Shown piece by piece: positions 5,869 through 21,886 of a stretch of 27,101 bases of DNA (positions are counted from its first letter, which is position 1; every line of letters starts with the position of its first letter). Origin of the DNA: Comamonadaceae bacterium (GTDB lineage: Bacteria; Pseudomonadota; Gammaproteobacteria; Burkholderiales; Burkholderiaceae_C); the NCBI GenBank assembly GCA_947457975.1, contig CANGYC010000001.1, forward strand, positions 1-27,101, given 5' to 3'. The position numbers and the translations under genes were made by a program. The notes under the pieces were generated by a model that saw only the letters and a program-made list of their open reading frames with translations, was not told the origin of the DNA and made no database searches.

Positions 5869-5901
5869 CCAGGCGCCACATCACAGCGTCTGGGCTTTTT
5901 T
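5869..5901 (+). terminator. Rho-independent terminator after the MFS gene
   Basis: CCAGGCGC (5869-5876) pairs with GCGTCTGG (5886-5893) in an 8-bp stem with one G-U pair and a 9-base loop. GC and then six T residues (5896-5901) follow. It lies 19 bases after the MFS stop codon and insulates the ABC/P450 operon from upstream transcription. Confidence 0.8.
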
Positions 5902-5917
5902 GCCTGCGCGGGAATGC

Positions 5918-5948
5918 TTGGTATTTCCACTAGTAGACATATCAACTA
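5918..5948 (+). promoter_or_regulatory. Candidate promoter with MarR-type operator dyad
   Basis: The 18-mer TAGTAGACATATCAACTA (5931-5948) is an imperfect palindrome, with 14 of 18 positions symmetric, of the TAGTnGA..TCnACTA form often seen for MarR-family operators. A second, wider dyad centred on ACTAGT has arms at 5918-5928 (TTGGTATTTCC) and 5935-5945 (AGACATATCAA) and overlaps it. TTGGTA (5918-5923) and TATCAA (5940-5945), 16 bases apart, could be weak -35 and -10 elements. The dyad lies between the terminator and the first gene of the operon, which itself encodes a MarR protein. The dyad is seen directly; the regulator match is inferred. Confidence 0.55.
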
Positions 5949-6024: not shown

Positions 6025-7194
6025 ATGGGTATGAGGACAAATTGGTTGGGCGCCGCCTTGTTGGCGGCGGGCATGGTCGGCGCCGCGCAGGCCCAGACCG
6101 TCAAGGTGGGCATCATTGCGCCCTTTTCAGGGCCTTTCGCGCATTACGGCACCTTGTTCAAGGCCGGCGCCGAGGCCTATGTGGCTAGCCAGGGCGGCAA
6201 GCTCGCCGGCCAGAACATCGAGTTTGTCTGGCGCGACGAGGGCGGCCCCAACCCTGCCAACACCCGCACTCTCGCTCAGGAACTCGTGGTCAAGGACAAG
6301 GTGGACTACATCGGCGGCATCGTCTTCTCGCCAAATGCGTCGGCGGTGGCGCCTGTCATCCAGGAATCGAAGACCCCCATGGTGATCTTCAATGCTGCTA
6401 CCAGCGACATCACCACCAGGTCCGACTACTACATCCGCACCAGCTATACGCTGTGGCAGGTCACGGTGCCGGCGGCGCAACACGCGGCCAAAAAGGGCTA
6501 CAAGCGCGTGGTCACGGCTGTTTCGGACTACGCTCCCGGCATTGACGCCGAGACCGCTTTCAAGGCCGAGTTCAGCAAGCTCGGCGGTCAAGTCACCGAG
6601 TCCATCCGCATGCCTGTGCGCACCACCGACTTCGCGCCCTTTGCCCAGCGCATCAAGGCCAGCGGCGCGCAGGCCGTCTATGTGTTCCTGCCCGGCGGCC
6701 CCCCCAACCTGGGCTTTGTGAAGGCCTACCAGGAAAATGGCCTGCGCCAAGCCGGCATCGAGTTCCTGGGTACTGCCGAGACCGACGAGTTCGACCTGCA
6801 AAAGTTCGGCGACAGCGCGCTCGGCCTGACGACCCTGTTCCACTATTCCGGCGCGCGCGACAGCGCCGCCAACAAGGCCTTCGTGGCCGCCGTGAACAAG
6901 CAAAACAAGGAGGCGGTCATCAACTACGCCACCGTAGGCGCTTGGGACGGCATGTATGTGATCCACAAGATGATCGAGGCCACCGGCGGTAAGCGCGACG
7001 GCGACAGGGCCATGGCTGCGGCCAAGACGCTCAAATGGGAAAGCCCGCGCGGGCCGGTGTCCATTGACCCCAACACCCGCCACATTACTCAGAACGTCTA
7101 TCTCCGCGTCGTTGAAAAAGGCCCGGGTGGCCTGCTCATCAACAAGGAAGTGCAGACCTTCCCTGCCCAGCCCGACCACGGCCTGGCCAAGTAA
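6025..7194 (+). CDS. ABC transporter periplasmic binding protein, branched-chain amino acid/aromatic acid type
   Basis: A 389-residue LivK-like (type I fold) solute-binding protein. Residues 1-23 are a Sec signal peptide ending AAQA, with cleavage before QTVKVGIIAPFSG. The mature protein shows the family pattern: VKVGIIAPFSGPFAHYG, a DEGG.NPANTR stretch, and a second lobe with GYKRVVTAVSDYAPG. The ATG at 6025 is chosen because AGGAG (6014-6018) is six bases upstream and the signal peptide then begins properly; an upstream in-frame ATG at 5914 would bury the signal peptide. It is the first gene of a complete importer that continues into a P450 system. The ligand is therefore more likely the aromatic acid substrate than an amino acid, because this binding-protein family includes known aromatic-acid receptors. 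Ligand identity is inference. Confidence 0.9.
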   Translation: MGMRTNWLGAALLAAGMVGAAQAQTVKVGIIAPFSGPFAHYGTLFKAGAEAYVASQGGKLAGQNIEFVWRDEGGPNPANTRTLAQELVVKDKVDYIGGIVFSPNASAVAPVIQESKTPMVIFNAATSDITTRSDYYIRTSYTLWQVTVPAAQHAAKKGYKRVVTAVSDYAPGIDAETAFKAEFSKLGGQVTESIRMPVRTTDFAPFAQRIKASGAQAVYVFLPGGPPNLGFVKAYQENGLRQAGIEFLGTAETDEFDLQKFGDSALGLTTLFHYSGARDSAANKAFVAAVNKQNKEAVINYATVGAWDGMYVIHKMIEATGGKRDGDRAMAAAKTLKWESPRGPVSIDPNTRHITQNVYLRVVEKGPGGLLINKEVQTFPAQPDHGLAK

Positions 7195-7220
7195 GCGCAG
7201 CTCAGACCTCGGGGGACGGC

Positions 7221-8087
7221 GTGACCTTGCTGGCCAACATCCTGATTGATGGCATCGCCTACGGCATGGTGCTGTTCATCATCGCGGTGGGTCTGTCGGT
7301 CACCCTGGGGCTGATGCGCTTCGTGAATCTGGCCCATGGCGCCTTTGCCATGACGGGCGGCTACCTGGCCGCCTGGCTGGTGGGCGCGCAGGGCTGGCCA
7401 TTTGCGTGGGGCGCTCTAGCGGCGGTGGTCCTCACTGGATTGCTCGGCATGCTGCTCGAGGCCTTGGTGCTGCGCAGGCTCTACCGGCGCAGCGAGTTGC
7501 AGCAGGTGCTCTTCACCATTGGCCTGACCTTTCTCTTCGTGGCCACCGCCAATCTGCTGGCCGGCCCCGAGGTGCAGCTCATCCCTCTGCCCGGCTGGCT
7601 CAAGACGCCGGTCGATCTGGGCATCCGCACCTTGCCCGCGCAGCGCCTGCTGGTCATCGCCGCAGGCCTGGCGGTGCTGCTGCTGAGCGCCTGGGTGCTG
7701 GGGCGCTCGCGCTTTGGCATTTGGCTGCGCGCCACGGTGGATAACACCGGCGCTGCTGCCGCTTTAGGCATTCCGGTGCAGTGGGTTTATGCACTGACCT
7801 TTGGCGTGGGCGCTGCCCTGGCCGGGCTGGGCGGCATCCTGGGCGCCGAGCTCATGCCCCTGGAGCCCTACTACCCCATCAAGTACCTGGTGCTCGTGTT
7901 GGTGGTGGTGGCCGTGGGCGGCATGGGTAGCATCACCGGTTCGGCGGTGGCTGCCCTGGCCTTGGGCACCATCGAGACCGCGAGCAAGTACCTGGCTTCG
8001 GACTGGGGTAGCCTGTTTTTCTTCCTGTCCATGGCGCTTTTCCTGGCCTGGCGCCCGCAGGGGCTGCTGGTGGCCCGGCGCACCTGA
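7221..8087 (+). CDS. ABC transporter permease, LivH type
   Basis: A 288-residue inner-membrane permease of the branched-chain amino acid (HAAT) uptake family. It has about eight hydrophobic segments and the family stretch GLSVTLGLMRFVNLAHGAFA near residues 27-46. The C-terminal GGMGSITGSAVAALALG loop contacts the ATPase in this family. A GTG start at 7221 follows a GGGGGA stretch and lies 26 bases after the binding-protein stop. It pairs with the next gene (LivM type) to form the membrane channel. By position it serves the same substrate as the binding protein; amino acid transport remains possible. Confidence 0.93.
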   Translation: MTLLANILIDGIAYGMVLFIIAVGLSVTLGLMRFVNLAHGAFAMTGGYLAAWLVGAQGWPFAWGALAAVVLTGLLGMLLEALVLRRLYRRSELQQVLFTIGLTFLFVATANLLAGPEVQLIPLPGWLKTPVDLGIRTLPAQRLLVIAAGLAVLLLSAWVLGRSRFGIWLRATVDNTGAAAALGIPVQWVYALTFGVGAALAGLGGILGAELMPLEPYYPIKYLVLVLVVVAVGGMGSITGSAVAALALGTIETASKYLASDWGSLFFFLSMALFLAWRPQGLLVARRT

Positions 8088-8105
8088 ACACCCGGCCCTG
8101 CTCTC

Positions 8106-9101
8106 ATGACCGGCCTGACCCTTCATGCCCCGCCGCTGTGGCGCCAGGTGCTGCCCTATGCGGCCTTGCTGGGCTTGGCGCTGCTGATCTATTTTGTGTT
8201 CCCGGACCAGTTGCCCATGGCTGCGCGCATTGCGGCCCTGGCCATCTTCGTGATGTCACTGGACCTGGTGGTCGGCTACGGCGGGCTGGCCACGCTGGGC
8301 CATTCGGCCATGTACGGCGTGGGCGCCTACGCGGCCGGCCTGCTGGCCACGCACCTGACGGGCAACCCGCTGCTGGGCCTGCTGGCTGGCGCTTGCGCAG
8401 GCGCGCTGCTGGCGTTCCTGAGCGGGCTTTTTCTGTTGCGCTATGAGGGCCTGACCTTTTTGATGCTGACCATCGCCATCAGCCAGATCGCGCAGAACCT
8501 GGCCAGCAAGCTGCGCCAGTGGACGGGCGGCGATGATGGACTGTCTGGATTCACCATCAACAAAATCCTGGGCTTGGCCTCGTTTGACCTGCAGGGCCGG
8601 GTGGCCTTTGTCTACTGCTTTGCCGTGATGTTCATCAGCCTTTGGCTGATGCGCAGGCTGATGGCCTCGCCATTTGGCCTGGCCTGCGTGGGCATCCATC
8701 AGAACCGCCAGCGCATGGCGGCCCTGGGCACGCGCATCCGCTGGCAGCTGCTCAAGCTCTACACCATCTCCGGCGCGTTCGCCGGCATCTCGGGTGCGCT
8801 GGCCGCCCAGGTGGCGCAGATCGTGGGTCTTGATACCCTGGGCTTTGAACTTTCGGCCGAGGCCCTGGTGATGCTGGTGCTGGGCGGCGCCGGTAACCTG
8901 TGGGGCGCGCTGGTGGGCACGGTGGTCTTTGCCAGCATCCACCACTGGGCCTCCACGCTCAACCCCTATCACTGGCTGTTCATCATTGGCGGCATGCTGG
9001 TGATCATGGTGCTGGTGCCGCGCGAGCGCTGGGGCCAGGCTTTGTCTCGGCGGCTGCAGGTGTTCAGGCGCGCGGCCACGCCGGCGGGAGCGTCCTCATG
9101 A
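8106..9101 (+). CDS. ABC transporter permease, LivM type
   Basis: A 331-residue second permease of the importer, with about nine to ten membrane segments. The LivM signature LDLVVGYGGLATLGHSAMYGVGAYAAG is seen in several pieces around residues 50-80. The ATPase-contact region near 235-270 reads SGAFAGISGALAAQV, then GGAGNLWGALVGT. The start lies 18 bases after the LivH-type stop. Its own stop overlaps the following ATPase gene in an ATGA at 9098-9101, so the membrane and motor subunits are translationally coupled. Length and topology are normal for the family. The substrate is taken from operon context only. Confidence 0.93.
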   Translation: MTGLTLHAPPLWRQVLPYAALLGLALLIYFVFPDQLPMAARIAALAIFVMSLDLVVGYGGLATLGHSAMYGVGAYAAGLLATHLTGNPLLGLLAGACAGALLAFLSGLFLLRYEGLTFLMLTIAISQIAQNLASKLRQWTGGDDGLSGFTINKILGLASFDLQGRVAFVYCFAVMFISLWLMRRLMASPFGLACVGIHQNRQRMAALGTRIRWQLLKLYTISGAFAGISGALAAQVAQIVGLDTLGFELSAEALVMLVLGGAGNLWGALVGTVVFASIHHWASTLNPYHWLFIIGGMLVIMVLVPRERWGQALSRRLQVFRRAATPAGASS

Positions 9102-9847
9102 GCGCGCTGCTGCTCGAGACCCGGCAGCTGCGCAAATCGTTTGGTGGCCTGCAGGTTACCCGGGACATCAACTTGCACCTGCAGGCCGGGGAGAAGGTTG
9201 GTCTGATTGGGCCCAATGGCGCGGGCAAGACCACGCTGATCAACCTCATCACCGGCGTGCTGACGCCCAGCGCCGGCAGCGTGTGCCTGGCCGGCGAGGA
9301 TGTGAGCGCGTTGAGCCAGGCCCAGCGTGTCAAGCGCGGCCTGGTGCGCACCTTCCAGATCACCCAGCTTGCGCCCACCTTGCCGGTGCGGCTGCAGGTG
9401 GAAATGGCTATTCACGAACGCGAGGGTTCCATCGGCCGACTCTGGCGGCCGCTAGGCAGTTACAGCGCGGTGCAGGGCGAGGCCCAGAGCATCTTGCAGT
9501 CCCTGCGCATGGACGCGCTGGCTGCACGCGCCCCCGTGGAGCTGGCCGATGGCGAGCCGCGTCTGGTCGAGATCGCGCTGGCCATGGCCTTGCGCCCGCG
9601 CGTGCTGCTGCTTGACGAGCCCATGGCCGGCGTGCCATCCGGCGAGCGCCAGGTGGTGCTCCAGGCCCTGGACGGTCTGCCCGCAGACTTGGCGATCCTC
9701 ATGATCGAGCACGACATGGATTTGGTTTTCAATTTCGCCGACCGCATGATGGTGCTGGCCGAAGGCGCGGTGCTGGCCGAGGGCAGCCCGGCAGAGATCC
9801 GTCGCCACCCGGCGGTGCGCGCGGCCTATTTGGGCGAGGAGGGCTAA
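9098..9847 (+). CDS. ABC transporter ATP-binding protein, LivG type
   Basis: A 249-residue ATPase subunit. Walker A GPNGAGKTT is at residues 38-46, Walker B LLLDEP with D173-E174, and the switch histidine H205 lies in MIEHDMD. The signature loop reads LADGEPRLVEIA (149-160), whereas LivG proteins usually have LAYGEQRRLEIA, so two positions of the ATP-contacting motif are unusual (Tyr to Asp and Gln to Pro). The VRTFQ motif (83-87) is present. The start is the ATG overlapping the LivM stop; the frame is open further upstream, but that part is antisense to nothing and codes over livM. It forms the motor heterodimer with the next gene. Confidence 0.93.
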   Translation: MSALLLETRQLRKSFGGLQVTRDINLHLQAGEKVGLIGPNGAGKTTLINLITGVLTPSAGSVCLAGEDVSALSQAQRVKRGLVRTFQITQLAPTLPVRLQVEMAIHEREGSIGRLWRPLGSYSAVQGEAQSILQSLRMDALAARAPVELADGEPRLVEIALAMALRPRVLLLDEPMAGVPSGERQVVLQALDGLPADLAILMIEHDMDLVFNFADRMMVLAEGAVLAEGSPAEIRRHPAVRAAYLGEEG

Positions 9848-9850
9848 AGC

Positions 9851-10561
9851 ATGGCTTTGCTGGAAGTCAGTGACCTGCACGCCGGTTATGGCCCAGTGCA
9901 GGTGCTGCACGGCATTGAATTGGCCGTTGAGCCCGGCGAGCGACTGGCCCTGATTGGCCGCAACGGCGTGGGCAAGACCACATTGCTCAAGGCCTTGATG
10001 GGGCTGGCCGATGTGCGCCGGGGCGCGGTGCGTCTGGAGGGCCGCCCCCTGGGCCAGACCGGGCCTGGCGCCCGCGCGCTGGCGGGCCTGGGCTATGTGC
10101 CTCAGACGCGCGACATCTTTCCTTCGCTCACGGTGGAGGAAAATTTGATCGCCGGTCTCAAGGGCCGACCGGTGCGCTGCGTGCAGGAGGCTTATGAGCT
10201 GTTTCCGCGCCTGGCCGAACGCCGGCGCAATGGCGGTAGCCAGCTCTCCGGCGGCGAGCAGCAGATGCTCAGCGTGGCGCGCACGCTGCTGGGCCAGCCG
10301 CGGCTCTTGCTGCTCGATGAGCCGCTGGAGGGACTGGCGCCCATCATCTGCCAGGAGCTCATGGCTGCTTTCACCCGGCTGGCCAGCCAGACCGGCGTGG
10401 CCGTGGTGCTGGTCGAACAAAAGGTCGATGCGGCGCTGCGCTTTGCGCAGCAGGCCATCGTGCTCGAGCGCGGCGCCGTGGTCCACCGGGAAGCCTGCCA
10501 CAGCCTGAGCGCGCGGCCCGAGTTGCTTGAGCGCTATGTGGGCGTCGCGGGTGCCCATTGA
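9851..10561 (+). CDS. ABC transporter ATP-binding protein, LivF type
   Basis: A 236-residue ATPase, the partner of the LivG-type subunit. Walker A GRNGVGKTT is at residues 36-44, the signature LSGGEQQ at 132-138, and Walker B LLLLDEP with D156-E157 followed by LEGLAP, the LivF hallmark. A VLVEQKVDAAL stretch contains a Gln where most ABC proteins have the H-loop His, which is usual for LivF (VEQN-type). Only three bases separate it from the previous stop. It is the last transport gene. The P450 start is 21 bases downstream with no terminator between, so transport and oxidation genes share one transcript. Confidence 0.94.
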   Translation: MALLEVSDLHAGYGPVQVLHGIELAVEPGERLALIGRNGVGKTTLLKALMGLADVRRGAVRLEGRPLGQTGPGARALAGLGYVPQTRDIFPSLTVEENLIAGLKGRPVRCVQEAYELFPRLAERRRNGGSQLSGGEQQMLSVARTLLGQPRLLLLDEPLEGLAPIICQELMAAFTRLASQTGVAVVLVEQKVDAALRFAQQAIVLERGAVVHREACHSLSARPELLERYVGVAGAH

Positions 10562-10582
10562 ATCTAAAGAGGGAACTCTCAC

Positions 10583-11809
10583 ATGACCACTGACTCCGTG
10601 CCAGCAGCCCCCGCTGGCGTGCCCGTGCTGGACGTCGATCCGTTTTCCAACGCACTGCTCGCCGACCCCTATCCCTACCATGAGCGCCTGCGCGCGGCTG
10701 GCCCCGTGGTGTGGATGCCCAAGTACGGTATCTATGTCACCGGCCGCCATGAGCCGGTGCGCCAGGTCCTCAACGACCACGAGAGCTACATCTCTTCGGC
10801 GGGCGTGGGGCTGGCCAACTTCAGCAAGGAGCCGCCCTTTCGGCCCAAGAGCCTGATCCTGGAGGCCGACCCGCCCAATCACACCCGCGCGCGAACCATC
10901 CTCTCGCGCATCCTGTCGCCGCGCACCGTCGCCCAGATCCGTGAAAGTTTTGCCCAGGAGGCCGACCACCTGCTCGACGGCGTGCTCGAGGCGGCCCGCC
11001 GCGGCGAGATCGTCGACGGCGTCCCGCGCATCGCCGAGGCCTATCCGCTCAAGGTCTTTCCCGACGCCGTGGGCCTGGGATCCGATGGTCGTGAGAACCT
11101 GCTGCTTTACGGCGACATGATTTTCAACGCCTTCGGCCCGCGCAACGAACTGCTGATCCGTTCGGCCGAGAAGGTGCAGCCAGTGACGGCCTGGATCATG
11201 GCGCACTGCCAGCGCGCCATGCTGCGCCCCGGCGGCTTTGGCGACCAGATTTACCAGGCCGCCGACGCCGGCGAGATCAGCCAGGATGAGGCGCCCATGC
11301 TGGTGCGATCTTTCCTTTCGGCGGGCGTGGACACCACGGTCAATGGCATCGGCAATGCCTTGTGGTGCCTGGCCACCAACCCCGAGGCCTATGCCAGGCT
11401 CCACGCAGATCCCAGCCTGGCGCGTCAGGCCTTCGAGGAATCGCTGCGCTACGAGTCGGCCGTGCAGACCTTTTTCCGCACCACCTCGCGCGAGGTGGAA
11501 CTGACGGGGATCCCCATGCCCGCCGGCTCCAAGGTGCTGACCGTGCTGGCCGCCGCCAACCGAGACGAGCGCCAGTGGCCGGACCCCGATCGCTTTGACA
11601 TCGGCCGCCGGCCCACCGGTCACATGGCATTTGGCTCGGGCATCCACGGCTGCGTGGGCCAGGTGGTGGCTCGGCTGGAGGGCGAGCTCATCCTTGCGGG
11701 CATCGCCAAGCGCTTTGCACGTATCGAATTGGCGGGCGAGCCCACGCGCCGCCTGAACAACACCTTGCGCGCGCTGGCCTCGCTCCCCCTGCGCTTGATC
11801 CCCGCCTGA
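10583..11809 (+). CDS. Cytochrome P450, CYP199A-like (para-substituted benzoate type)
   Basis: A 408-residue soluble bacterial P450 monooxygenase. Family landmarks are the I-helix SAGVDTT with the acid-alcohol pair D250-T251, ExxR at E286-R289, and heme loop FGSGIHGCVGQ with ligand Cys357. Long stretches resemble CYP199A2/A4 of Rhodopseudomonas palustris as I recall them: SLILEADPP, EAYPLKVFPDAVGL, FNAFGPRNEL, VRSFLSAGVDTTVNGI and LNNTLRAL. Residues equivalent to the CYP199A4 carboxylate anchors (Arg92, Ser95, Arg243, Ser247) appear as R87, S90, R242 and S246. The pocket phenylalanines 182, 185 and 298 appear as F181, F184 and F297. This predicts hydroxylation or O-demethylation of a para-substituted benzoic or cinnamic acid. 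GAGGG near 10568 serves as ribosome site. Ferredoxin and reductase follow. The subfamily call is from memory, not a search. Confidence 0.9.
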   Translation: MTTDSVPAAPAGVPVLDVDPFSNALLADPYPYHERLRAAGPVVWMPKYGIYVTGRHEPVRQVLNDHESYISSAGVGLANFSKEPPFRPKSLILEADPPNHTRARTILSRILSPRTVAQIRESFAQEADHLLDGVLEAARRGEIVDGVPRIAEAYPLKVFPDAVGLGSDGRENLLLYGDMIFNAFGPRNELLIRSAEKVQPVTAWIMAHCQRAMLRPGGFGDQIYQAADAGEISQDEAPMLVRSFLSAGVDTTVNGIGNALWCLATNPEAYARLHADPSLARQAFEESLRYESAVQTFFRTTSREVELTGIPMPAGSKVLTVLAAANRDERQWPDPDRFDIGRRPTGHMAFGSGIHGCVGQVVARLEGELILAGIAKRFARIELAGEPTRRLNNTLRALASLPLRLIPA

Positions 11810-11826
11810 TCGTCGACTGATTTGCC

Positions 11827-12150
11827 ATGCCTGTTATTTATCTGATCACCCACGAAGGCCAGCGCACCGAGCTGCACGTCCCGCAAGGCCAAAGCGTCAT
11901 GCAGGCAGCGGTGGCCGCTGGCGTGCGGGGCATCGTTGGCGAGTGCGGCGGCTCTGCCATGTGCGCCACCTGCCACGTCTACATCGACCCGGCTTGGCTG
12001 GACAAGGTCCAGCCGCCGCTGTCCAACGAGCTCGAGATGCTGGAGTGCACCTCTAGCGAGCGCTTGCCGCAAAGCCGGCTGTCCTGCCAGATCAAGGTCC
12101 ACGCCGAGCTCAATGGGCTGGTGCTGCGAATGCCGGCCAGCCAGCAATGA
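11827..12150 (+). CDS. [2Fe-2S] ferredoxin, putidaredoxin/adrenodoxin type
   Basis: A 107-residue one-electron carrier that would pass electrons from the reductase to the P450. The cluster ligands follow the vertebrate-type spacing: C40, C46 and C49 in ECGGSAMCATCH, and C87 in SRLSCQIKV. The fourth-ligand motif LSCQIKV is typical of P450-partner ferredoxins such as putidaredoxin and palustrisredoxin. An extra Cys74 is probably not a ligand. The start at 11827 lies 17 bases after the P450 stop. The stop overlaps the MarR gene start in ATGA (12147-12150). Adjacency to the P450 mirrors the CYP199A2/palustrisredoxin pair. The role is well supported; partner specificity is inferred. Confidence 0.95.
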   Translation: MPVIYLITHEGQRTELHVPQGQSVMQAAVAAGVRGIVGECGGSAMCATCHVYIDPAWLDKVQPPLSNELEMLECTSSERLPQSRLSCQIKVHAELNGLVLRMPASQQ

Positions 12151-12713
12151 AGGCCGCCCAGGTCGCAACGCAGGTCGAGCGCCCTTCGGCGCTGATCGAC
12201 CTCGACCGCTATGTGCCGGGCTATCTCACTTGGATTTCCAACAAGCTTTCGGGCGGGGCTTCGCAGGCCTACCTCACAGCTTTCGGCACCGGGATCGAAA
12301 CCTGGCGTCTGCTGGTGCTGCTGGCCATTGAGCGCACCTTGTCGGCTCAGTACGCCTGCCGGGTGATCGGCATGGACAAGGCCTCGGCCAGCCGGGCCTT
12401 TAAGCGCATGCAGTCCGACGGGCTGATCACCATTGGGCTGGATGCGAATGACGGCCGCCTGCGCCTGGCCAGCATCACGGCCAAGGGCCAGGCCCTGCAC
12501 GACGAGATCCGCGAGCTGGCCCTCGAGCGCGAACGCGCCCTGCTGTCCCCCTTGTCCTCCGAGGAGCAGGAGGTGCTGCTCGATCTGCTGCGCCGCCTGC
12601 ACGACAACCTGCCGGCTGTCGAGGATGCCACCCGGCGCTACCTACAGCAGCGCCATCCGCAGGCGCTGCGCAAACGAGTCAACCGACCAGGCGCCAACAA
12701 AGGCCAGCCATGA
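12147..12713 (+). CDS. MarR-family transcriptional regulator
   Basis: A 188-residue winged helix-turn-helix protein. The DNA-binding core runs about residues 55-112. A helix AQYACRVIGMD leads to the recognition helix KASASRAFKRMQSDGL (78-93) and a wing DANDGRLRLASIT with the conserved Asp-x-Arg pattern. Helices before (20-50) and after (115-168) would form the dimer interface. MarR proteins often repress aromatic-acid genes and release DNA when the acid or its CoA ester binds. The gene is embedded between ferredoxin and reductase, overlapping both by four bases, so it is expressed with the operon it probably controls. A matching dyad lies at 5931-5948. The C-terminal tail (170-188) is basic and longer than usual. 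Confidence 0.9.
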   Translation: MKAAQVATQVERPSALIDLDRYVPGYLTWISNKLSGGASQAYLTAFGTGIETWRLLVLLAIERTLSAQYACRVIGMDKASASRAFKRMQSDGLITIGLDANDGRLRLASITAKGQALHDEIRELALERERALLSPLSSEEQEVLLDLLRRLHDNLPAVEDATRRYLQQRHPQALRKRVNRPGANKGQP

Positions 12714-13933
12714 GTGGGGATCCGATTGTGATTGTGGGTGCCGGACATGCGGCGATGGCGCTGTGCGCCAGTCTGGTCGATGCCGGCCACGGCCCACGCG
12801 TGTGTCTGGTCGGCGACGAAGACGCGCTGCCCTACCAGCGCCCGCCTCTGTCCAAGGCCTTCCTGAAAAACCCCGATGAGCCAGCGCAGCCGCTGCGCGA
12901 TGCGGCTTGGTTTGCCGCGGCCGGCGTGCAGTGCCTCCTGGACGATCCCGTCCAGTCCCTGGATCGTCAAGCCCACAGCCTGGGCCTGCGCTCGGGCCGC
13001 AGTCTGGCCTACGGCCAGCTGGTGCTTGCGACTGGCGCACGCGCACGCCGCCTGCCCGGCTGGCCTGCAGCGTCCAATGTCCATGTGCTGCGCAGCGCGC
13101 AGGACGCGCGCGCCCTGCGCGAGGCCTTGGCGGCCTGCCGCTCACTCACCATCCTGGGCGGCGGGTTCATCGGCCTGGAGGTGGCGGCCACCTGCGCGGC
13201 CCTGGGCAAGCCGGTGACGGTGCTCGAAGCGGGTCCGCGCCTGATGGGCCGGGCCGTTTCCGAGGCGCTGTCCGCGCATGTGCTCGCGCAGCACCGGGCT
13301 GCCGGCATCCGCATCGAGCTGCTGGCGGAAGTGGGCGCCCCCAGCTTCAGCCACCAGCGCCTGGTCCGGCTGGATGGTGCCTCGGGCGCATACGCGGTCG
13401 ATCAGTTGCTGCTTGCCATCGGCGCGCAGCCCAACACCGAGCTGGCCGAGGCGGCCGGCCTGGCCTGCGCCGATGGCATCGTGGTCGATGGCCTGCAGCG
13501 CACCAGCGATCCGCAGATCCTGGCCATCGGCGATTGCACGCGCTTTGCGTGGCGCGGCGCCGACCTGCGGCTGGAGTCCATTCAGAACGCGCAGGACCAG
13601 GCCCGCGTGGCGGCGGCTACGCTGCTGGGCGGGTCACCGCAGCCTTACCAGCCCCTGCCCTGGTTCTGGTCCGAGCAGGGCAGCATGCGCTTGCAGATGG
13701 TGGGTCTGCTGGATCCCGGCCCGGTACGCACCGTGCAGCGTGCCGGTGCCCAGCCCGGCAGCTTCAGCCTGTTTCACTTCCAGCAGGAACTGCTGCGCTG
13801 TACTGAGGCGGTCAATGCGCCGGCCGACTTCATGGTCGCGCGCAAGCTGCTGGAGGCCGGCGTTCAGCCCACGCCCGAACGGATCGCAGATCCCGCTCAG
13901 CCGTTGCGCACCTTGTTGCCTGCGGCGGGCTGA
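12710..13933 (+). CDS. NAD(P)H-dependent ferredoxin reductase (FAD), P450-associated
   Basis: A 407-residue flavoprotein of the oxygenase-coupled ferredoxin reductase family (putidaredoxin reductase, palustrisredoxin reductase). The N-terminal FAD motif VIVGAGHAA is at residues 7-15. PYQRPPLSK (41-49) is the family hallmark. The NADH-binding motif GGGFIGLE is at 150-157, and the second FAD motif ILAIGDC ends at 276. The C-terminal dimer domain contains PWFWSEQ. It would take electrons from NADH and reduce the upstream ferredoxin. It overlaps the MarR gene by ATGA (12710-12713) and ends the operon. A convergent gene follows 78 bases later. The length is normal. Confidence 0.94.
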   Translation: MSGDPIVIVGAGHAAMALCASLVDAGHGPRVCLVGDEDALPYQRPPLSKAFLKNPDEPAQPLRDAAWFAAAGVQCLLDDPVQSLDRQAHSLGLRSGRSLAYGQLVLATGARARRLPGWPAASNVHVLRSAQDARALREALAACRSLTILGGGFIGLEVAATCAALGKPVTVLEAGPRLMGRAVSEALSAHVLAQHRAAGIRIELLAEVGAPSFSHQRLVRLDGASGAYAVDQLLLAIGAQPNTELAEAAGLACADGIVVDGLQRTSDPQILAIGDCTRFAWRGADLRLESIQNAQDQARVAAATLLGGSPQPYQPLPWFWSEQGSMRLQMVGLLDPGPVRTVQRAGAQPGSFSLFHFQQELLRCTEAVNAPADFMVARKLLEAGVQPTPERIADPAQPLRTLLPAAG

Positions 13934-15242: not shown

Positions 15243-17228
15243 TCATCCTTTGAGCAGTTTGTCTTCAGCCAGCGCCAGCGCGGCCGGCCGGCCTGAGAGC
15301 ACCAAGGTGTCGCCACCCTCGAGCAAGGAGCCGTCGTCGATGGGCACACTTTGCCCGCCCGCGCGGCGCAGGCTCACCACGCGCACCCCCACGGCGTGCA
15401 GCGCCAGCGCGTCCAGCGGCTTGCCCGCCAGTCTGGCGCCAGGCGGCAGGTTGACGGTGGACAGCCGCTCCTGCTCCATCTCATGCAGGCTGCTGTCGTC
15501 GGCGCCGTGGAAGTAGCCGCGCAACAGGTTGTAGCGGGCGTCTCGCTGGTCCTGCACCAGGCGGATCACGCGCCGCATGGGCACGCCCACCAGGGCCAGC
15601 GCGTGGCTGGCCAGCATCAGGCTGCCCTCAATGGCCTCGGGCACCACTTCGGTGGCGCCGGCGGCCTGCAGTTGTTCGAGGTCGTGGTCGTCCACCGTGC
15701 GCACGATCACCGGTACGCTGGGTGAATGCTCGCGCACATTGGCCAGCACCTTCAGCGCACTGGCGGTGTCCAGGTAGGTCACCACCACGGCGCTTGCGCG
15801 GGCCAGGCCCGCGGCCATCAGCGACTGCGGCCGCACCGCGTCACCAAACACTACCGAGTTGCCGGCGGCGGCGGCCTGGCGCACGCGGTCGGGGTCGAGG
15901 TCGAGCGCGATGTGCGGAATGTCTTCCTTGTCCAGCATGCGGGCCAGATTTTGGCCGCAGCGGCCGTAGCCGCAGATGATCACGTGCTTGTGGGTATTGA
16001 TGGCCTTGCGGGCGATGCTGGTCATCTGCAGCGACTGCTGCATCCATTCGCTGCTCACCAGCTTCATGACGATCTGATTGGCGCTCAGGATGATGAAGGG
16101 TGTGGCCAGCATGGACAGCACCATGGCCGCCAGCACCGGGTTGAGCAGGCTGGCGGGCACCAGCCGGCTGTCCTGCGCCAGCGTGAGCAGCACAAAGCCA
16201 AATTCGCCGGCCTGCGCCAGGTACAGGCCCGTGCGCAGCGCCACGCCTGCCGTGGCCCCCAGCACCCAGGTCAGGGCCGTGATGAGGGCCAGCTTGAGCA
16301 GCACCGGCACCAGCAGCAGCACCAGCACCAAGGGCCAGTTGCCCGCCACCTCGCGCCAGTCGAGCATCATGCCGATGCTGATGAAGAACAGGCCCAGCAG
16401 CACGTCGTGGAAGGGCCGGATGTCGGTTTCCACCTGGTGCTTGTATTCGGTCTCGGAAATCAGCATGCCGGCCACGAAGGCGCCCAGCGCCAGGCTCAGG
16501 CCGGCCAGTTCGGTGAGCCAGGCCAGCGCCAGCGTTACCAGCAGGAGGTTGAGCACAAAGAGCTCTTCGCTCTTGCGCCGCGCCACCAGGGTGAGCCACC
16601 AGCGCATCACGCGCTGACCGCCTGTGAGCAGCACGCCCACCAGCACCGTGGCTTTCAAGAGGGCCAGGGCCAGCGCACCGAAGAGTTCTTCGGCTGGCGA
16701 GCCCAAGGCAGGAATGATCACCAGCAGGGGCACCACGGCCAGATCTTGAAACAGCAGGATGCCCATCACGCGGCGGCCATGCTCGGTCTCGAGCTCCAGG
16801 CGTTCGGCCAGCATCTTGACCACCAGCGCCGTGCTGCTCATGGCCACTGCGCCTGACAGCGCCAGCGCGGCCTGCCAGGACAGGTTCCACAGGCGGGGCG
16901 CGCCCCAGCTCAGCAGCAGTGAGCCGCCCACCACCAGCAGCATGGTCAGCACCACCTGGCACAGGCCCAGGCCGAACACGTGCCGGCGCATCGCGCGCAG
17001 CTTGCCCAGGTTGAATTCCAGGCCAATGACGAACATCAGGAACACCACGCCGAATTCGCCCAGGTGGCGCACGCTGTCCGCGTTGTCCGCCAGGGCCAGC
17101 GCATTCGGGCCGATGACCACGCCCACCGCCAGGTAGCCCAGCACGGGCGGCAGCTTGAGGTAGCGGCAGACCACCACGCCCATCACCGCGGCCAACAGGT
17201 AAAAGAGCGTGAGTTCGAGTCCAGACAT
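15243..17228 (-). CDS. Kef-type K+/H+ antiporter (CPA2 family) with RCK domains
   Basis: A 661-residue protein. Residues about 5-385 form a CPA2 cation/proton exchanger domain of 12-13 hydrophobic helices, with the [11 protein letters not shown] signature at 159-169 and [15 protein letters not shown] at 246-260. Residues about 415-530 form an RCK_N (TrkA-N) Rossmann domain starting [19 protein letters not shown] TrkA-C domain runs about 570-655. The arrangement fits KefB/KefC-like potassium efflux, often gated by glutathione adducts or nucleotides. No KefF/KefG-like partner is adjacent, so the exact subtype is left open. The start at 17228 ([10 protein letters not shown]) is chosen because translation further upstream would run antisense into kdsD. 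The gap to the divergent kdsD is 51 bases. Confidence 0.92.
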
Positions 17229-17267
17229 CGTCCAAGCATGGTAGCGGATGCCTCTGCGGCGGCTCAC

Positions 17268-17273
17268 TAGAAT
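17268..17273 (+). promoter_or_regulatory. -10 element TAGAAT, predicting a leaderless kdsD transcript
   Basis: TAGAAT matches five of six bases of the sigma-70 -10 consensus and ends six bases before the kdsD ATG at 17280. Initiation seven or so bases downstream would fall on or next to the start codon, leaving no 5' leader. There is also no Shine-Dalgarno in the 51-base gap. No convincing -35 is seen. Confidence 0.5.
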
Positions 17274-17279
17274 GCGGTC

Positions 17280-18272
17280 ATGACCCTCGGCGCCAAGACC
17301 TTCGATCCTGCACAGTCGCTGGCACTGGCCCGCAAGACCTTCGAGATCGAGGCAGCGGCCGTGCTGGGCCTGGCGGCGCGCGTTGGTGCAGACTTCAGCC
17401 GTGCCGTGGACCTGATGCTGGCGTGCCGTGGCCGCATCGTGGTCATGGGCATGGGCAAGAGCGGCCACATCGGCCGCAAGATTGCTGCCACGCTCGCCTC
17501 CACCGGCACCCCCGCCATGTTCGTGCACCCCGCCGAGGCCAGCCATGGCGACCTGGGCATGATCACGGCCGAGGACGTGGTGCTGGGCATCTCCAATAGC
17601 GGCGAGAGCGAAGAGCTCACCAATCTGCTGCCCACGCTGCGCCGCCAGCAGGTCAAGCTGATCGCCATGACCGGTGGCCTGGGCTCCTCCCTGGCGCGCC
17701 ATGCCAATGTGGTGCTGGACACCAGCGTGTCGCAGGAAGCTTGTCCGTTGAACCTGGCGCCCACCGCCAGCACCACGGCCCAGCTGGCCATGGGTGACGC
17801 CCTGGCCGTGGCCCTGCTCGATGCACGCGGCTTCAAGCCGGAAGACTTTGCCCGTTCACACCCCGGCGGATCGCTCGGCCGCAAGCTGCTCACGCACGTG
17901 AGCGATGTCATGCGCACAGGCGAGGCCGTGCCGGCTGTCGGTGCGGACGCGGGTTTTAGCGAACTCATGCGCGAGATGAGCAGCAAGGGTTTGGGCGCCA
18001 CCGCCGTGGTCGATGAGCAGCGCCGCGTGCTGGGCATCTTCACCGACGGCGATCTGCGCCGCCTGGTCGAGCAGGGCCAGGACCTGCGCCAGCTGCGTGC
18101 GGCCGATGTGATGCATGCCCAGCCGCGCACCCTGCAGGCCACAGCCTTGGCGGCCGAGGCGGCTGCGCTCATGGAGCAGCACCGCATCACCAGCGTGCTG
18201 GTGGTGGACGAGGCCGCGCGCCTGTGCGGCGCGCTCAACAGCAACGATCTCATGCGGGCCAAGGTGATCTGA
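17280..18272 (+). CDS. kdsD: D-arabinose 5-phosphate isomerase (KdsD/GutQ family)
   Basis: This interconverts ribulose 5-phosphate and arabinose 5-phosphate, the first step of Kdo synthesis for lipopolysaccharide. The 330-residue protein has an N-terminal SIS sugar-isomerase domain (about 45-180) with GRIVVMGMGKSGHIGRKIAATL, the HPAEASHGDLG active-site stretch and SNSGES phosphate loop (105-110). Two CBS domains follow (about 208-265 and 274-328), beginning VSDVMRTGEAV and AADVMHAQPRTL. The length is standard (about 320-330). The ATG at 17280 lies directly behind a -10-like TAGAAT with no ribosome site. The stop overlaps the kdsC start (TGATG at 18270-18274). Genes kdsD, kdsC and lptC form an LPS operon. 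Confidence 0.97.
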   Translation: MTLGAKTFDPAQSLALARKTFEIEAAAVLGLAARVGADFSRAVDLMLACRGRIVVMGMGKSGHIGRKIAATLASTGTPAMFVHPAEASHGDLGMITAEDVVLGISNSGESEELTNLLPTLRRQQVKLIAMTGGLGSSLARHANVVLDTSVSQEACPLNLAPTASTTAQLAMGDALAVALLDARGFKPEDFARSHPGGSLGRKLLTHVSDVMRTGEAVPAVGADAGFSELMREMSSKGLGATAVVDEQRRVLGIFTDGDLRRLVEQGQDLRQLRAADVMHAQPRTLQATALAAEAAALMEQHRITSVLVVDEAARLCGALNSNDLMRAKVI

Positions 18273-18874
18273 TGACCCTGCCAGCCAGTCACCCGCCTGC
18301 CCTGTCCTTCACCCCCGAGCAGTTGCTGCCCGCGCAGGACGTGCGCGTGGCCTTCTTCGATGTCGATGGCGTGCTCACCGACGGCGGCCTGTATTTCAGC
18401 GAGCACGCCGAGCGTGCGGCGCCCACCGGCCAGTTCTACGTGGCCAGTGAGACGATCAAGCGCTTCAACACCCTGGACGGTCATGGCCTGAAGCTGCTGC
18501 AAAAGGCGGGCATCACGCCCGTGGTGATCACTGGCCGCGACAGCCTGGTGCTGCGTGCGCGCCTGGATGCCCTGGGCATCACGCATGCCTATTTCGGCAC
18601 GGAAGACAAGCGCCCCGCGGCCGAAGAGACCCTGGCCAAGCTGGGCCTGGACTGGCACCAGGCCGCGGCCATGGGCGACGACTGGCCCGATCTGCCGGTG
18701 ATGCGCCGCGCTGCCGTCAGCTGCGCTCCGGCGCATGCCCATGCAGAGGTGCGTGCGGCTGCTCACCATGTGACGCAGGCCGCCGCCGGCCATGGTGCCG
18801 TGCGCGAGTGGTGCGACCTGCTGCTCACGGCCACCGGACACTACGCACGCCTGTTGGGCGACTACTTGCGATGA
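18272..18874 (+). CDS. kdsC: 3-deoxy-D-manno-octulosonate 8-phosphate phosphatase
   Basis: A 200-residue HAD-superfamily phosphatase that releases Kdo from Kdo 8-phosphate in the cytosol. Motif I is FFDVDGVLTDG with D30 and D32; motif II ITGRDS is at about 86-91; motif IV GDDWPDL at 135-141. The missing cap domain and the tetramer-type FNTLDGHGLKLLQKAG stretch are KdsC features. A stretch SEHAERAAPTGQFYVASETIK, seen as two short pieces around 43-63, makes it slightly longer than E. coli KdsC. The start at 18272 overlaps the kdsD stop by one base, and the stop overlaps lptC by ATGA (18871-18874). This is strong coupling within the LPS operon. Confidence 0.96.
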   Translation: MTLPASHPPALSFTPEQLLPAQDVRVAFFDVDGVLTDGGLYFSEHAERAAPTGQFYVASETIKRFNTLDGHGLKLLQKAGITPVVITGRDSLVLRARLDALGITHAYFGTEDKRPAAEETLAKLGLDWHQAAAMGDDWPDLPVMRRAAVSCAPAHAHAEVRAAAHHVTQAAAGHGAVREWCDLLLTATGHYARLLGDYLR

Positions 18875-19572
18875 ATCTGCCGGACCTTTTTCCGGCGCCC
18901 ACCGCGGCAAATCTGCGCCCTCGGCAGCTGCTGCGCGCTGTGCTGGCCGTCTGGGACCGCTTGGCGATTTACCTGCCCATGGTGCTCATGGCCGTGCTGG
19001 CCTTGCTCACCTACTGGATGGTGCGCCTGGCGCCGCAGTTGGCCGAGCCGCAGGAACCACAGCCCAAGACGCACGAGGTCGATTTCTTCATGCGCGGCGC
19101 CACCATGCGCACCTATGACAAGGACGGTCGCCTGCAGAGCCAGCTCTTTGGCGCCGAGATGCGGCATTACGACGACAGTGCCACGGTCGAGGTCGACCAT
19201 CCCCGCTGGAAGTCCACGGCACCCGATGGGCGCGTGACGCATGCCACCGCCCGACTGGCCCTTAGCCGCGACGATGGCTCGGAACTGCAGCTCTTCAATA
19301 ACGCGGTGGTGGTGCGCGATGCGCTGACCACCGCGCGCAGCGGCATGCTGCCTCGCCAGGAGTTTCGTGGCGACTTCCTGCATGTCTTCGCCAAAGACGA
19401 GCGCATGTTGTCGCACCTGCCCGTGCGCTTTTTCAGTGGTCAGGATGAATTCAGCGGCGAGAGCTTTCGCTATGACCACCTTAACCGCACAGTCGAACTC
19501 GAAGGCCGCGCCAAGGCGCGCATCATGCCCCGGGCCACACCCTCTCAGCCCTCTTCTGCACGTCGCCCCTGA
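18871..19572 (+). CDS. lptC: LPS export protein LptC
   Basis: A 233-residue bitopic inner-membrane protein that receives LPS from LptB2FG and hands it to periplasmic LptA. One membrane helix lies near residues 33-53 (LAIYLPMVLMAVLALLTYWM), then the periplasmic LptC beta-jellyroll with DFFMRGATMRTYDKDGRLQSQL and the typical FSGQDEFSGESFRYDH near the end. The start is the ATG overlapping the kdsC stop; the frame is open upstream but only within kdsC. In many proteobacteria lptA and lptB follow directly; here a repeat tract and a terminator follow instead. The sequence evidence for LptC is good, supported by the operon. Confidence 0.93.
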   Translation: MNLPDLFPAPTAANLRPRQLLRAVLAVWDRLAIYLPMVLMAVLALLTYWMVRLAPQLAEPQEPQPKTHEVDFFMRGATMRTYDKDGRLQSQLFGAEMRHYDDSATVEVDHPRWKSTAPDGRVTHATARLALSRDDGSELQLFNNAVVVRDALTTARSGMLPRQEFRGDFLHVFAKDERMLSHLPVRFFSGQDEFSGESFRYDHLNRTVELEGRAKARIMPRATPSQPSSARRP

Positions 19573-19580
19573 GCGAAAAG

Positions 19581-19610
19581 GGTGGCAAAGGGCGGCAAAG
19601 GGCCGCAAAG
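19581..19610. repeat. Three tandem 10-bp repeats after lptC
   Basis: Three successive 10-base units, GGTGGCAAAG, GGCGGCAAAG and GGCCGCAAAG, fill 19581-19610. A degenerate fourth unit (GAGCGAAAAG) precedes them. They begin nine bases after the lptC stop and are non-coding. Their function is unknown; they could arise by slippage. Confidence 0.75.
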
Positions 19611-19649
19611 GGTGCGTCGACCTCAGCGCGCTTTTTTTGCGGGCATGAA

Positions 19650-19679
19650 AAAACCCTGGTGCCAAGGCGCCAGGGTTTT
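19650..19679. terminator. Bidirectional Rho-independent terminator
   Basis: AAAACCCTGGTGCC (19650-19663) pairs with GGCGCCAGGGTTTT (19666-19679), a nearly perfect 14-bp stem with a 2-base gap, so the true loop is a few bases larger. T residues flank it on the plus side and an A-run (19648-19653) gives U residues on the minus side. It lies between the convergent lptC and RRM-protein genes and can serve both. Confidence 0.85.
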
Positions 19680-19754
19680 GGGTGCACGTCGGAACGTGCG
19701 CTGCGTCAGGACCGGGCCGAATCGATGTTCAGGCGCGGTCCAGGGACAGCTGGA

Positions 19755-20183
19755 TCAGTAACCGCCGCGGCCACCGCCGCCGCCGCCACGACCGCCGCCA
19801 CCGTAGGGGCTGCGGAAACCGCCGTCACTGCCGCCGCCGCCGTAGCCGCCGCCGCCCGAACGGCCACCACCGCCGCCGCCGCCGAAGCCACCACCGCTAC
19901 CGCCGCCGAAGCCACCGCTGCGGGGAGGACGAGCCTCCATCGGACGGGCTTCGTTCACCACCACACTGCGGCCGCCCATGGACTGGCCGTTCATGCCGTT
20001 GATGGCGGCTTGCGCCTCGGCGTCGCTGCCCATTTCCACGAAGCCGAAGCCCTTGGAACGACCGGTGTCGCGCTCCATCATGACTTTGGCGCTGGTCACA
20101 GAACCGAATTCAGAAAAGGATTGCTGCAGATCTTCGTCGCGCACCGAGTACGGCAGATTGCCGACGTAAAGTTTGTTGCCCAT
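19755..20183 (-). CDS. Glycine-rich RNA-binding protein, single RRM
   Basis: A 142-residue protein with one RNA recognition motif and a glycine-rich tail. RNP2 LYVGNL is at residues 5-10 and RNP1 KGFGFVEM at 44-51, both with the aromatic residues that stack on RNA. From about residue 86 the chain is nearly all Gly, Arg, Ser and Tyr in GGX and RGG-like units, ending GGRGGY. Such proteins are known in cyanobacteria and many proteobacteria and are often cold-induced, acting as RNA chaperones; that role is inferred. The ATG at 20183 is preceded by AGGAG (20191-20195), which lies inside a hairpin stem. The tail is written in GCC/CCG-type triplet repeats on the plus strand. Confidence 0.93.
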   Translation of the reverse strand: MGNKLYVGNLPYSVRDEDLQQSFSEFGSVTSAKVMMERDTGRSKGFGFVEMGSDAEAQAAINGMNGQSMGGRSVVVNEARPMEARPPRSGGFGGGSGGGFGGGGGGGRSGGGGYGGGGSDGGFRSPYGGGGRGGGGGGRGGY

Positions 20184-20186
20184 CTT

Positions 20187-20226
20187 GGGACTCCTAAAAA
20201 CACTGAAACGAAAGCGATGGAGTCCC
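20187..20226 (-). promoter_or_regulatory. 5' UTR hairpin hiding the Shine-Dalgarno of the RRM gene
   Basis: On the plus strand GGGACTCC (20187-20194) and GGAGTCCC (20219-20226) are perfect 8-bp inverted repeats with a 24-base loop. In the minus-strand mRNA the downstream arm contains the AGGAG ribosome site (20195-20191), three to four bases before the start codon region, so folding blocks translation. The loop is U-rich. This would fit temperature control or binding by the protein itself. Confidence 0.65.
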
Positions 20227-20294
20227 GAAAGCACAAACGCGCGAAACTGACCAATCACCTGACTTGCGTGGTGGTCGCCCTCCACGCCCAAAGG

Positions 20295-20325
20295 ATTATG
20301 CGCGAGATTGCTTAAATGCCGTCAA
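20295..20325 (-). promoter_or_regulatory. Candidate sigma-70 promoter of the RRM gene
   Basis: On the minus strand TTGACG (20325-20320) and CATAAT (20300-20295) each match five of six consensus bases, separated by 19 bases, which is at the long end of the allowed range. Initiation near 20288 would give a leader of about 105 bases that includes the Shine-Dalgarno hairpin. Confidence 0.5.
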
Positions 20326-20326
20326 G

Positions 20327-21807: not shown

Positions 21808-21846
21808 GAAAGATGATTCCTTTAAAACGACGAAATCACGCCTTGT

Positions 21847-21886
21847 TTTGGTGCACGAGCCCACAAAACACGCATGATGCACCAAA
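21847..21886 (-). promoter_or_regulatory. Inverted NtrC-like half-sites upstream of amt
   Basis: TTTGGTGCA (21847-21855) and TGCACCAAA (21878-21886) are perfect 9-bp inverted repeats with a 22-base spacer, centres 31 bases (about three helical turns) apart. TGCACCA is the NtrC half-site, though the two halves face outwards relative to a classical site. No sigma-54 -24/-12 element was found between them and amt. Confidence 0.45.

What the first reader, a model, noticed from the sequence alone, without database searches (positions are those of the whole stretch)
6025..13933. Aromatic-acid importer and complete class I P450 system in one operon
Nine genes on one strand with gaps of 26 bases or less, and three ATGA overlaps: binding protein, two permeases, two ATPases, P450, ferredoxin, MarR regulator, ferredoxin reductase. 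No terminator is seen inside, and a strong one lies just before. Uptake, oxidation, electron supply and control of one substrate appear packaged together. CYP199A-type P450s are known with their ferredoxin; joining them to a dedicated branched-chain-type ABC importer and an embedded regulator is what deserves a look.
Basis: partly seen in the sequence, partly recalled or inferred. Interest (0 to 1): 0.78.

Follow-up and report, generated by a model that had tools for sequence, protein, structure and literature searches.

The report
Methoxybenzoate import-and-demethylation operon
Nine neighbouring bacterial genes look like one switchable unit that pumps in a plant-derived aromatic acid and lets a P450 enzyme cut off its methyl group; the unit and its control site recur in distant bacteria, so its function can be tested directly.

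Summary
In detail: nine co-directional genes (6025-13933), gaps of 26 bases or less, three ATGA overlaps, a terminator hairpin upstream. The P450 is 57% identical to CYP199A2 and keeps its substrate-anchoring residues; the binding protein is 57% identical to PDB 4EVS. The package is conserved: 10 of 10 other sampled family genomes with a P450 at least 62% identical, 6 of 11 P450-bearing genomes of a second family, and a Pseudosulfitobacter plasmid. It was not found at the loci of 30 examined genomes (of 42) of a third family that includes CYP199A2-type P450s. New here: a MarR-type palindrome before the first gene, in 14 of 15 held-out packages, once in this MAG; and neighbours in some relatives fitting O-demethylation: formaldehyde dehydrogenase, formylglutathione hydrolase, PobA, pcaIJF. 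Best reading: a MarR-controlled importer plus class I P450 turning a 4-methoxybenzoate-type acid into 4-hydroxybenzoate and formaldehyde. Ligand, reaction and co-transcription are inferred. Neither pobA nor class III formaldehyde dehydrogenase was found in this MAG (78% complete). New variant of a known kind.

The parts
5869..5901 (+). terminator-like hairpin with six T, ending the upstream MFS unit
   Evidence: fold; missed by the scan (loop of 9)
5915..5932 (.). second, weaker operator-like palindrome, starting 16 bases before the main one
   Evidence: 13.4 bits; such a pair at 16 bases in 14 of 18 Burkholderiales-type packages
5931..5948 (.). main MarR-type operator-like palindrome TAGTAGACATATCAACTA
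   Evidence: 30.0 bits (a training site); the only place in the own MAG with up to 3 mismatches to the consensus; motif in 14 of 15 held-out packages
6025..7194 (+). periplasmic binding protein of the importer (Peripla_BP_6), signal peptide by eye
   Evidence: 210 of 367 identical to PDB 4EVS
7221..8087 (+). ABC importer permease, LivH type
   Evidence: below urea and LivH cut-offs
8106..9101 (+). ABC importer permease, LivM type
9098..9847 (+). ABC importer ATPase, LivG type
   Evidence: Walker A
9851..10561 (+). ABC importer ATPase, LivF type
   Evidence: Walker A and LSGGE
10583..11809 (+). cytochrome P450, CYP199A type
   Evidence: pocket residues; 227 of 396 identical to 2FR7
11827..12150 (+). 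[2Fe-2S] ferredoxin, putidaredoxin-like
   Evidence: cysteine pattern
12147..12713 (+). MarR-family regulator, presumed to bind 5915-5948
   Evidence: MarR_2 36.9 bits, cut-off 27
12710..13933 (+). FAD ferredoxin reductase
   Evidence: nucleotide-binding motifs

Best explanation
One MarR-controlled catabolic operon for 4-methoxybenzoate (p-anisate) or a close para-substituted benzoate. Without substrate, MarR sits on the palindrome(s) at 5915-5948 and blocks the operon, its own gene included; an aromatic effector releases it. The binding protein catches the acid in the periplasm and the importer (two permeases, two ATPases) pumps it in. Electrons from NADH pass through the FAD reductase and the [2Fe-2S] ferredoxin to the P450, which holds the carboxylate with Arg87, Ser90 and Ser243 and removes the para methyl group, giving 4-hydroxybenzoate and formaldehyde. 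PobA with the protocatechuate pathway, and a formaldehyde oxidation route, finish the job; in some relatives these are coded next to the package. Shown: gene anatomy, conserved order, conserved operator motif, conserved pocket residues, catabolic neighbours in some relatives. Inferred: the ligand, the sense of regulation, the reaction, co-transcription.
For: Anatomy. P450 pocket: R87, S90, L93, F181, F184, R242, S243, S246, A247, T251, V294 and F297 match the CYP199A4/PbdA residues named in PMC11854964 and PMC11530827. SBP 57% identical to 4EVS; R. palustris SBPs of this kind bind 4-hydroxybenzoate (PMC3223731 section 10). Linkage. Operator motif: 14 of 15 held-out packages beat the 99th percentile of 841 background windows; the one miss, L182, has its site 194 bases before a formaldehyde dehydrogenase gene that precedes the SBP. 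Formaldehyde dehydrogenase in 7 of 89 loci, formylglutathione hydrolase in 4, PobA in 2, pcaIJF with a PcaR-type regulator in L185. In L181 the motif stands before frmA-P450-fdx-fdr and again 44 bases before a TRAP importer in place of the ABC importer. In two Rhodopseudomonas/related genomes the unlinked orthologous importer adjoins a Rieske protein with a LigXa_C domain.
Against: The own MAG shows neither pobA nor class III formaldehyde dehydrogenase; 7 of 27 package genomes, four of them at least 96% complete, show no such dehydrogenase at E <= 1e-150. Formaldehyde or 4-hydroxybenzoate genes adjoin only a minority of packages. The excess of pobA is modest (21 of 22 against 103 of 150). SBP ligand could be 4-hydroxybenzoate itself. 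No motif at 12 bits at the examined Rhodopseudomonas-type marR/P450 loci. In package P450s the site of CYP199A4 Phe185 is Phe in 13, Met in 9, Val in 8 of 30, so substrates may differ between packages.
Confidence: 0.72

Rival explanations
1. The importer is a broad or 4-hydroxybenzoate-directed benzoate importer and the P450 works on only one of the acids it brings in.
For: RPA0985 and RPA4029 bind 4-hydroxybenzoate strongly (PMC3223731 section 10); 4EVS is 57% identical to this SBP; that paper has no mention of anisic or methoxy compounds, so the related SBPs were not shown to bind them.
Against: Its genes travel with a P450 and, unlinked, with a LigXa_C-type Rieske protein, rather than with pobA alone.
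Confidence: 0.25
2. The P450 is mainly a hydroxylase of other para-substituted benzoates or cinnamates (alkylbenzoates, 4-methoxycinnamate, 4-coumarate), not a 4-methoxybenzoate O-demethylase.
For: CYP199A enzymes are promiscuous: p-ethylbenzoate is hydroxylated and desaturated (PMC11530827), coumarate by CYP199A2 (PMC11591617). Pocket positions vary among packages.
Against: Formaldehyde-oxidising genes beside the package or P450 in 7 of 89 loci and in a Rhizobium plasmid point to a methoxy substrate.
Confidence: 0.15
3. Importer and P450 are two transcription units that merely adjoin.
For: In L072 and L073 (one genome) they are 1.3-1.8 kb apart and a motif stands before the P450.
Against: In the window the gap is 21 bases, with no motif match (best -13 bits there) and no terminator-like site.
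Confidence: 0.08
4. A branched-chain amino acid or urea importer, by chance next to a P450.
For: Family resemblance to UrtABCDE and LivKHMGF models.
Against: All five subunits fall below the urea and Liv cut-offs; nearest solved SBPs are 4EVS and 4F06 of Rhodopseudomonas; conserved linkage.
Confidence: 0.02

Closest known systems
CYP199A2 / CYP199A4 systems of Rhodopseudomonas palustris
   Same: P450 57% identical with the same anchoring residues; ferredoxin next to the P450; a MarR gene beside it (marR divergent, L190-L193).
   Different: There no package importer and no reductase match lie in the fetched stretch (L190-L193); the SBP orthologue is about 0.9 Mb away in G1142 and G1100; no motif match at 12 bits.
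PbdAB of Rhodococcus jostii RHA1 (PMC11530827, passages and section 7 seen)
   Same: CYP199A P450 for p-methoxybenzoate and veratrate.
   Different: A single reductase PbdB as partner; no importer mentioned in the main text (0 matches for transporter). A Rhodococcus opacus plasmid relative has a VanB-type reductase and pobA, no ABC importer in the stretch.
Aromatic-acid HAAT importers of R. palustris (RPA0668/hbaEFGHI, RPA0985, RPA4029, RPA1789; PMC3223731 section 10)
   Same: Same importer architecture; SBP kind (57% to 4EVS; that 4EVS is RPA0985 with 4-hydroxybenzoate is recalled).
   Different: No P450 is named there (0 matches); the nearest orthologue adjoins a PcaR/PobR-type regulator, a glutamine-synthetase-like gene and a LigXa_C Rieske gene.
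GntR-type plasmid sets of Paracoccus yeei, Paracoccus sp. MA and Haematobacter massiliensis
   Same: Importer genes with a CYP199-like P450 (54-56%), ferredoxin and reductase.
   Different: GntR in place of MarR, a second P450, importer outside the package clade (SBP 44-47%).

Membership tests
CYP199A P450 subfamily | over 55% identity to a named member (nomenclature rule, recalled) | tested here: met
   57.3% to CYP199A2 over 396 aligned residues
CYP199A P450 subfamily | carboxylate-anchoring Arg92, Ser95, Ser244 (and Arg243) of CYP199A4 | tested here: met
   R87, S90, S243, R242; mapping, where chain numbers run one ahead of the paper's
CYP199A P450 subfamily | O-demethylation of 4-methoxybenzoate | not testable with these tools
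   needs enzyme assay
Class I P450 system | separate [2Fe-2S] ferredoxin and FAD reductase | tested here: met
   electron transfer itself not testable
HAAT (branched-chain-type) ABC importer | SBP, two permeases, two ATPases of the Liv/Urt kind | tested here: met
Urea or leucine/isoleucine/valine importer | NCBIfam cut-offs for Urt or Liv subunits | tested here: not met
   all five below cut-off
Aromatic-acid SBP of the 4EVS kind | sequence relation | tested here: met
   57.2% over 367 residues
Aromatic-acid SBP of the 4EVS kind | binding of an aromatic acid | not testable with these tools
   needs thermal shift or calorimetry; pocket contacts of 4EVS were not available here
MarR-controlled catabolic operon | MarR gene above the Pfam cut-off | tested here: met
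   36.9 bits against 27
MarR-controlled catabolic operon | conserved palindrome before the first gene | tested here: met
   14 of 15 held-out packages
MarR-controlled catabolic operon | this MarR binds that palindrome | not testable with these tools
   needs gel shift
Single operon | one transcript over nine genes | not testable with these tools
   spacing and overlaps fit; RNA needed

The most novel reading that the evidence does not exclude
A self-contained import-plus-demethylation cassette, assembled once around a dedicated aromatic-acid importer, moves between Burkholderiales and Rhodobacterales (also on a mobilizable plasmid) together with its MarR switch. The importer slot is exchangeable: a TRAP importer under the same operator in L181, and at least two other ABC importer lineages beside other CYP199 P450s; conversely the same importer kind sits with a LigXa-like Rieske oxygenase in Rhodopseudomonas-type genomes. 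Uptake and demethylation of scarce methoxylated lignin acids would be selected as a pair.
Probability: 0.55. Interest if true: 0.58.

Novelty: new variant of a known kind. Interest (0 to 1): 0.48.

Why it matters
O-demethylation is a bottleneck in using lignin-derived aromatics (stated in the abstract start of PMC6021390), and uptake is rarely tied to the enzyme. This locus predicts a matched set, importer, P450, both redox partners, sensor and operator, so a ligand, a biosensor promoter and an electron chain can be tested together. It also predicts the ligand class of a group of importers that public records call branched-chain amino acid transporters. I found no paper that describes the unit: the searches were made; of the four papers that hold both CYP199 and ABC transporter I saw the matching passages of three and only the listing of the fourth; most subscription papers are not held.

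Tried and rejected
Rejected: a branched-chain amino acid or urea importer (cut-offs missed). A first impression that the CYP199A4 Arg92/Ser95 anchors were lost was wrong: the differing residues lie elsewhere, and with the one-residue offset the anchors are R87 and S90. A motif shared by every CYP199/marR locus was not found: the Rhodopseudomonas- and Bradyrhizobium-type loci examined have no site at 12 bits, except one of 12.3 bits in L099 that lies over 600 bases from the P450. Of nine loci tested for a motif before the P450 itself, five have one (L072, L073, L080, L205, L206) and four do not (L006, L014, L015, L181; in L181 it stands before the frmA gene ahead of the P450). In the full 91-row P450 tree the two package groups are not joined and deep forks are weak; in a 57-row subset that I chose they are one side of a branch, support 85/79, not starred, so one origin of the P450 part is allowed, not shown. 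Whether position 180 (Ile here, Val in CYP199A2/A4, Ala in the R. opacus relative) is the PbdA residue that PMC11530827 links to veratrate is uncertain: by my count its number, Ala174, does not map exactly, and I did not see PbdA's own alignment. Paper searches with broad terms gave nothing on point.

Rows dropped: L019-L023 (weak or partial hits); L069 and L070 (same records as L008 and L012); L011 in the held-out test (site identical to L009's); P450 pieces covering under 300 query residues or holding stops in the trees; L079, L072, L004 and L005 in the importer tree (not all five subunits present and clean). L004, L005 and L072 were labelled package by hand in the P450 trees because liv genes adjoin the P450 on cut contigs. 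'Package' elsewhere means an SBP at least 50% identical to the window's in the stretch. The background windows of the operator test include the P450-upstream regions, so its maximum (23.7 bits) is itself a true-looking site (L073). Of 42 genomes with hits, 30 were examined, one locus each except for some with two or three; in L207 (G1088) an importer 43-51% identical lies 6 kb downstream on the other strand, cut by the stretch, so that one is undecided. Of 8 family genomes with best P450 identity of 51% or less, 6 were examined.
Full report
Observation. The nine genes, their order, strand, gaps (26, 18, -4, 3, 21, 17, -4, -4) and the three ATGA overlaps are as described. A terminator-like hairpin with six T stands at 5869-5901, after the upstream MFS gene; the consensus scan did not list it because of its 9-base loop. 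No terminator-like site lies in a gap between the nine genes. Pfam and NCBIfam support an SBP, two permeases, two ATPases, a P450, a [2Fe-2S] ferredoxin, a MarR protein and an FAD reductase.

What the proteins are. The P450 is 57.3% identical (227 of 396) to CYP199A2 (PDB 2FR7). The residues named for carboxylate and ring binding in CYP199A4 and PbdA (passages of PMC11854964, section 7 of PMC11530827) are kept: R87, S90, L93, F181, F184, R242, S243, S246, A247, T251, V294, F297. Position 180 is Ile, Val in CYP199A2/A4 and Ala in a Rhodococcus relative; PMC11530827 links an Ala/Val difference in PbdA to veratrate activity, perhaps this one, so veratrate may be a poor substrate (tentative). Across 30 package P450s R92, S95, L98, F182, R243, S244, S247, A248, T252 and F298 (CYP199A4 numbers) are invariant, while F185 and V295 vary. 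The SBP is 57.2% identical (210 of 367) to 4EVS. The importer subunits miss the urea and Liv cut-offs. The ferredoxin is closest to putidaredoxin; the reductase's best solved match is 3FG2, then BphA4-type and putidaredoxin reductases. PMC5320714 cites a structure of the reductase of the CYP199A2 system (reference list); that this is 3FG2 is recalled.

Conservation. The window lies in a 2.3 Mb MAG, 78% complete, with one P450 match, this one. Of 22 loci from the named collection, 17 are near relatives (L002-L018): in 13 of 17 liv genes adjoin the P450 (11 with SBP and all four liv genes, 2 on cut contigs), one contig starts inside the P450, and three lack the package importer (L006, L014, L015). 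Nine of the 11 also have fdx, marR and fdr in the window's order; L018 has them as fdx, fdr, marR; in L010 no fdx or fdr was matched. Of 399 sampled genomes of the same family, 19 have a match (own included); the 10 others whose best P450 is at least 62% identical all carry the package, split by 1.3-1.8 kb in G314; 6 examined of 8 at 51% or less do not. In a second family (198 genomes, 11 with matches) 6 of 11 carry SBP, four liv genes, P450 and fdx; a reductase was matched next to fdx in only 3 of these 6 and a marR in 5 (with G690). That family is unnamed, but Paracoccus sp. M683 (L018) and a Pseudosulfitobacter plasmid carry the like set and their importers group with it, so it is probably Rhodobacterales. 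In a third family, which includes genomes with the CYP199A2 peptide (L190-L193), none of 30 examined genomes (of 42 with hits) has a package SBP in the fetched stretch; one is undecided (L207). In L190-L193 marR is divergent from P450-fdx. The SBP orthologue there (56-57%) with its importer lies about 0.9 Mb away in G1142 and G1100.

Descent. A concatenated importer tree puts 18 Burkholderiales-type and 8 second-family package importers (L018 among these) in one clade, support 1.0, apart from 7 unlinked Rhodopseudomonas-type importers (FastTree, midpoint root). For the P450 the picture is weaker (see tried and rejected). Other importer lineages adjoin CYP199-like P450s: L205 and L206, and the GntR-type plasmid sets. 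So the pairing arose more than once, while this package importer probably joined once.

Operator. DNA upstream of the SBP holds a palindrome near TAGTTGATATATCAACTA. A symmetric weight matrix from 11 sites was tested on 15 held-out packages: in 14 the best site within 300 bases upstream of the SBP beats the 99th percentile of 841 background windows. The miss, L182, has an 18.2-bit site 194 bases before a formaldehyde dehydrogenase gene that precedes the SBP. In Burkholderiales-type packages a weaker site starts 16 bases from the main one in 14 of 18; in the second group paired sites are 36-38 bases apart in 7 of 8. The own MAG has one place with up to 3 mismatches, the one here. In L181, whose P450 falls among package P450s but has no ABC importer beside it, a 12.9-bit site stands 92 bases before frmA-P450-fdx-fdr and a 24.3-bit site 44 bases before a DctP-DctQ-DctM (TRAP) importer: another importer under the same motif.

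Neighbours that tell the reaction. Class III formaldehyde dehydrogenase lies in the stretch of L003, L006, L007, L012, L071, L181 and L182 (7 of 89 loci), S-formylglutathione hydrolase in L006, L007, L012, L071. NCBIfam names the dehydrogenase above cut-off in L003, L006, L012, L181, L182 and in the genome of L071 (G200); the contig-cut copy in L007 is below it. It is on the same strand just upstream of the SBP in L003, L182 and, with the hydrolase between, L007, and just upstream of the P450 in L181. In G260, G786 and G200 the copy by the package is the only one found; a chance position within 10 kb would be about 0.5% each (my estimate). But 7 of 27 package genomes show none at E <= 1e-150 (the cut L007 copy among them). 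PobA lies by L018 and L079, and pcaIJF with a PcaR-type regulator by L185. A Rhizobium plasmid has P450-fdx-fdr-frmA-fghA-gfa, a Rhodococcus opacus plasmid P450, IclR, pobA. pobA is found in 21 of 22 package genomes against 103 of 150 family genomes, a modest excess. In Rhodopseudomonas-type genomes the orthologous importer adjoins a PcaR/PobR-type regulator (L226), glutamine-synthetase-like genes (L227, L231) and Rieske proteins with a LigXa_C domain (L226, L231); that LigXa is an O-demethylase is recalled. Formaldehyde and 4-hydroxybenzoate are the two expected products of 4-methoxybenzoate demethylation.

Against. The own MAG shows neither pobA nor the dehydrogenase. Incompleteness may explain it, but the sister MAG G785 (with pobA) also lacks the dehydrogenase, so another formaldehyde route must be assumed. 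Only a minority of packages have such neighbours. The ligand could be 4-hydroxybenzoate. Control by the embedded MarR is inferred from gene and motif staying together.

Known or new. Each part belongs to a known family. The unit was not found described in the searches made, though public records such as NZ_CP022418 carry it with generic names. I rate it a new variant of a known kind, of moderate interest because it makes clear, linked predictions.

Noticed in passing
L002:5271 and window 14027: In the near-identical locus L002 a short piece like the 3' end of the downstream histidine-phosphatase gene lies upstream of the SBP, a possible scar of insertion or rearrangement. In L003, L004 and L017 the MFS gene lies on the other side of the package.
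   Followed up: partly
L226, L227, L231: The orthologous importer of Rhodopseudomonas-type genomes sits with a PcaR/PobR-type regulator, a LigXa_C Rieske protein and a glutamine-synthetase-like protein: a second, different oxygenase paired with the same importer kind.
   Followed up: partly
L181:11754-14622: A TRAP importer preceded by a strong match to the package's operator motif, near frmA-P450-fdx-fdr.
   Followed up: partly
L233, L234, L235: Plasmids of Haematobacter and Paracoccus carry importer genes with two P450 genes, ferredoxin and reductase under a GntR-type gene; an IS3 transposase lies close by in P. yeei.
   Followed up: partly
L238: Rhizobium plasmid pRL12: P450-fdx-fdr-frmA-fghA-gfa, a P450 directly followed by a whole formaldehyde detoxification set.
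   Followed up: no
own MAG (G000) and G785: No class III formaldehyde dehydrogenase found in either, nor in four package genomes at least 96% complete; how they handle formaldehyde is open.
   Followed up: no
L014: A 73% identical P450 without the partners in a MAG named Caenispirillum; it groups with Comamonadaceae P450s, so transfer or a misbinned contig.
   Followed up: no
window 15243-25926: Downstream genes are mostly housekeeping: a KefB-like exchanger, a SIS-CBS protein, LptC, an ammonium transporter, G6PD and a hydrolase.
   Followed up: no
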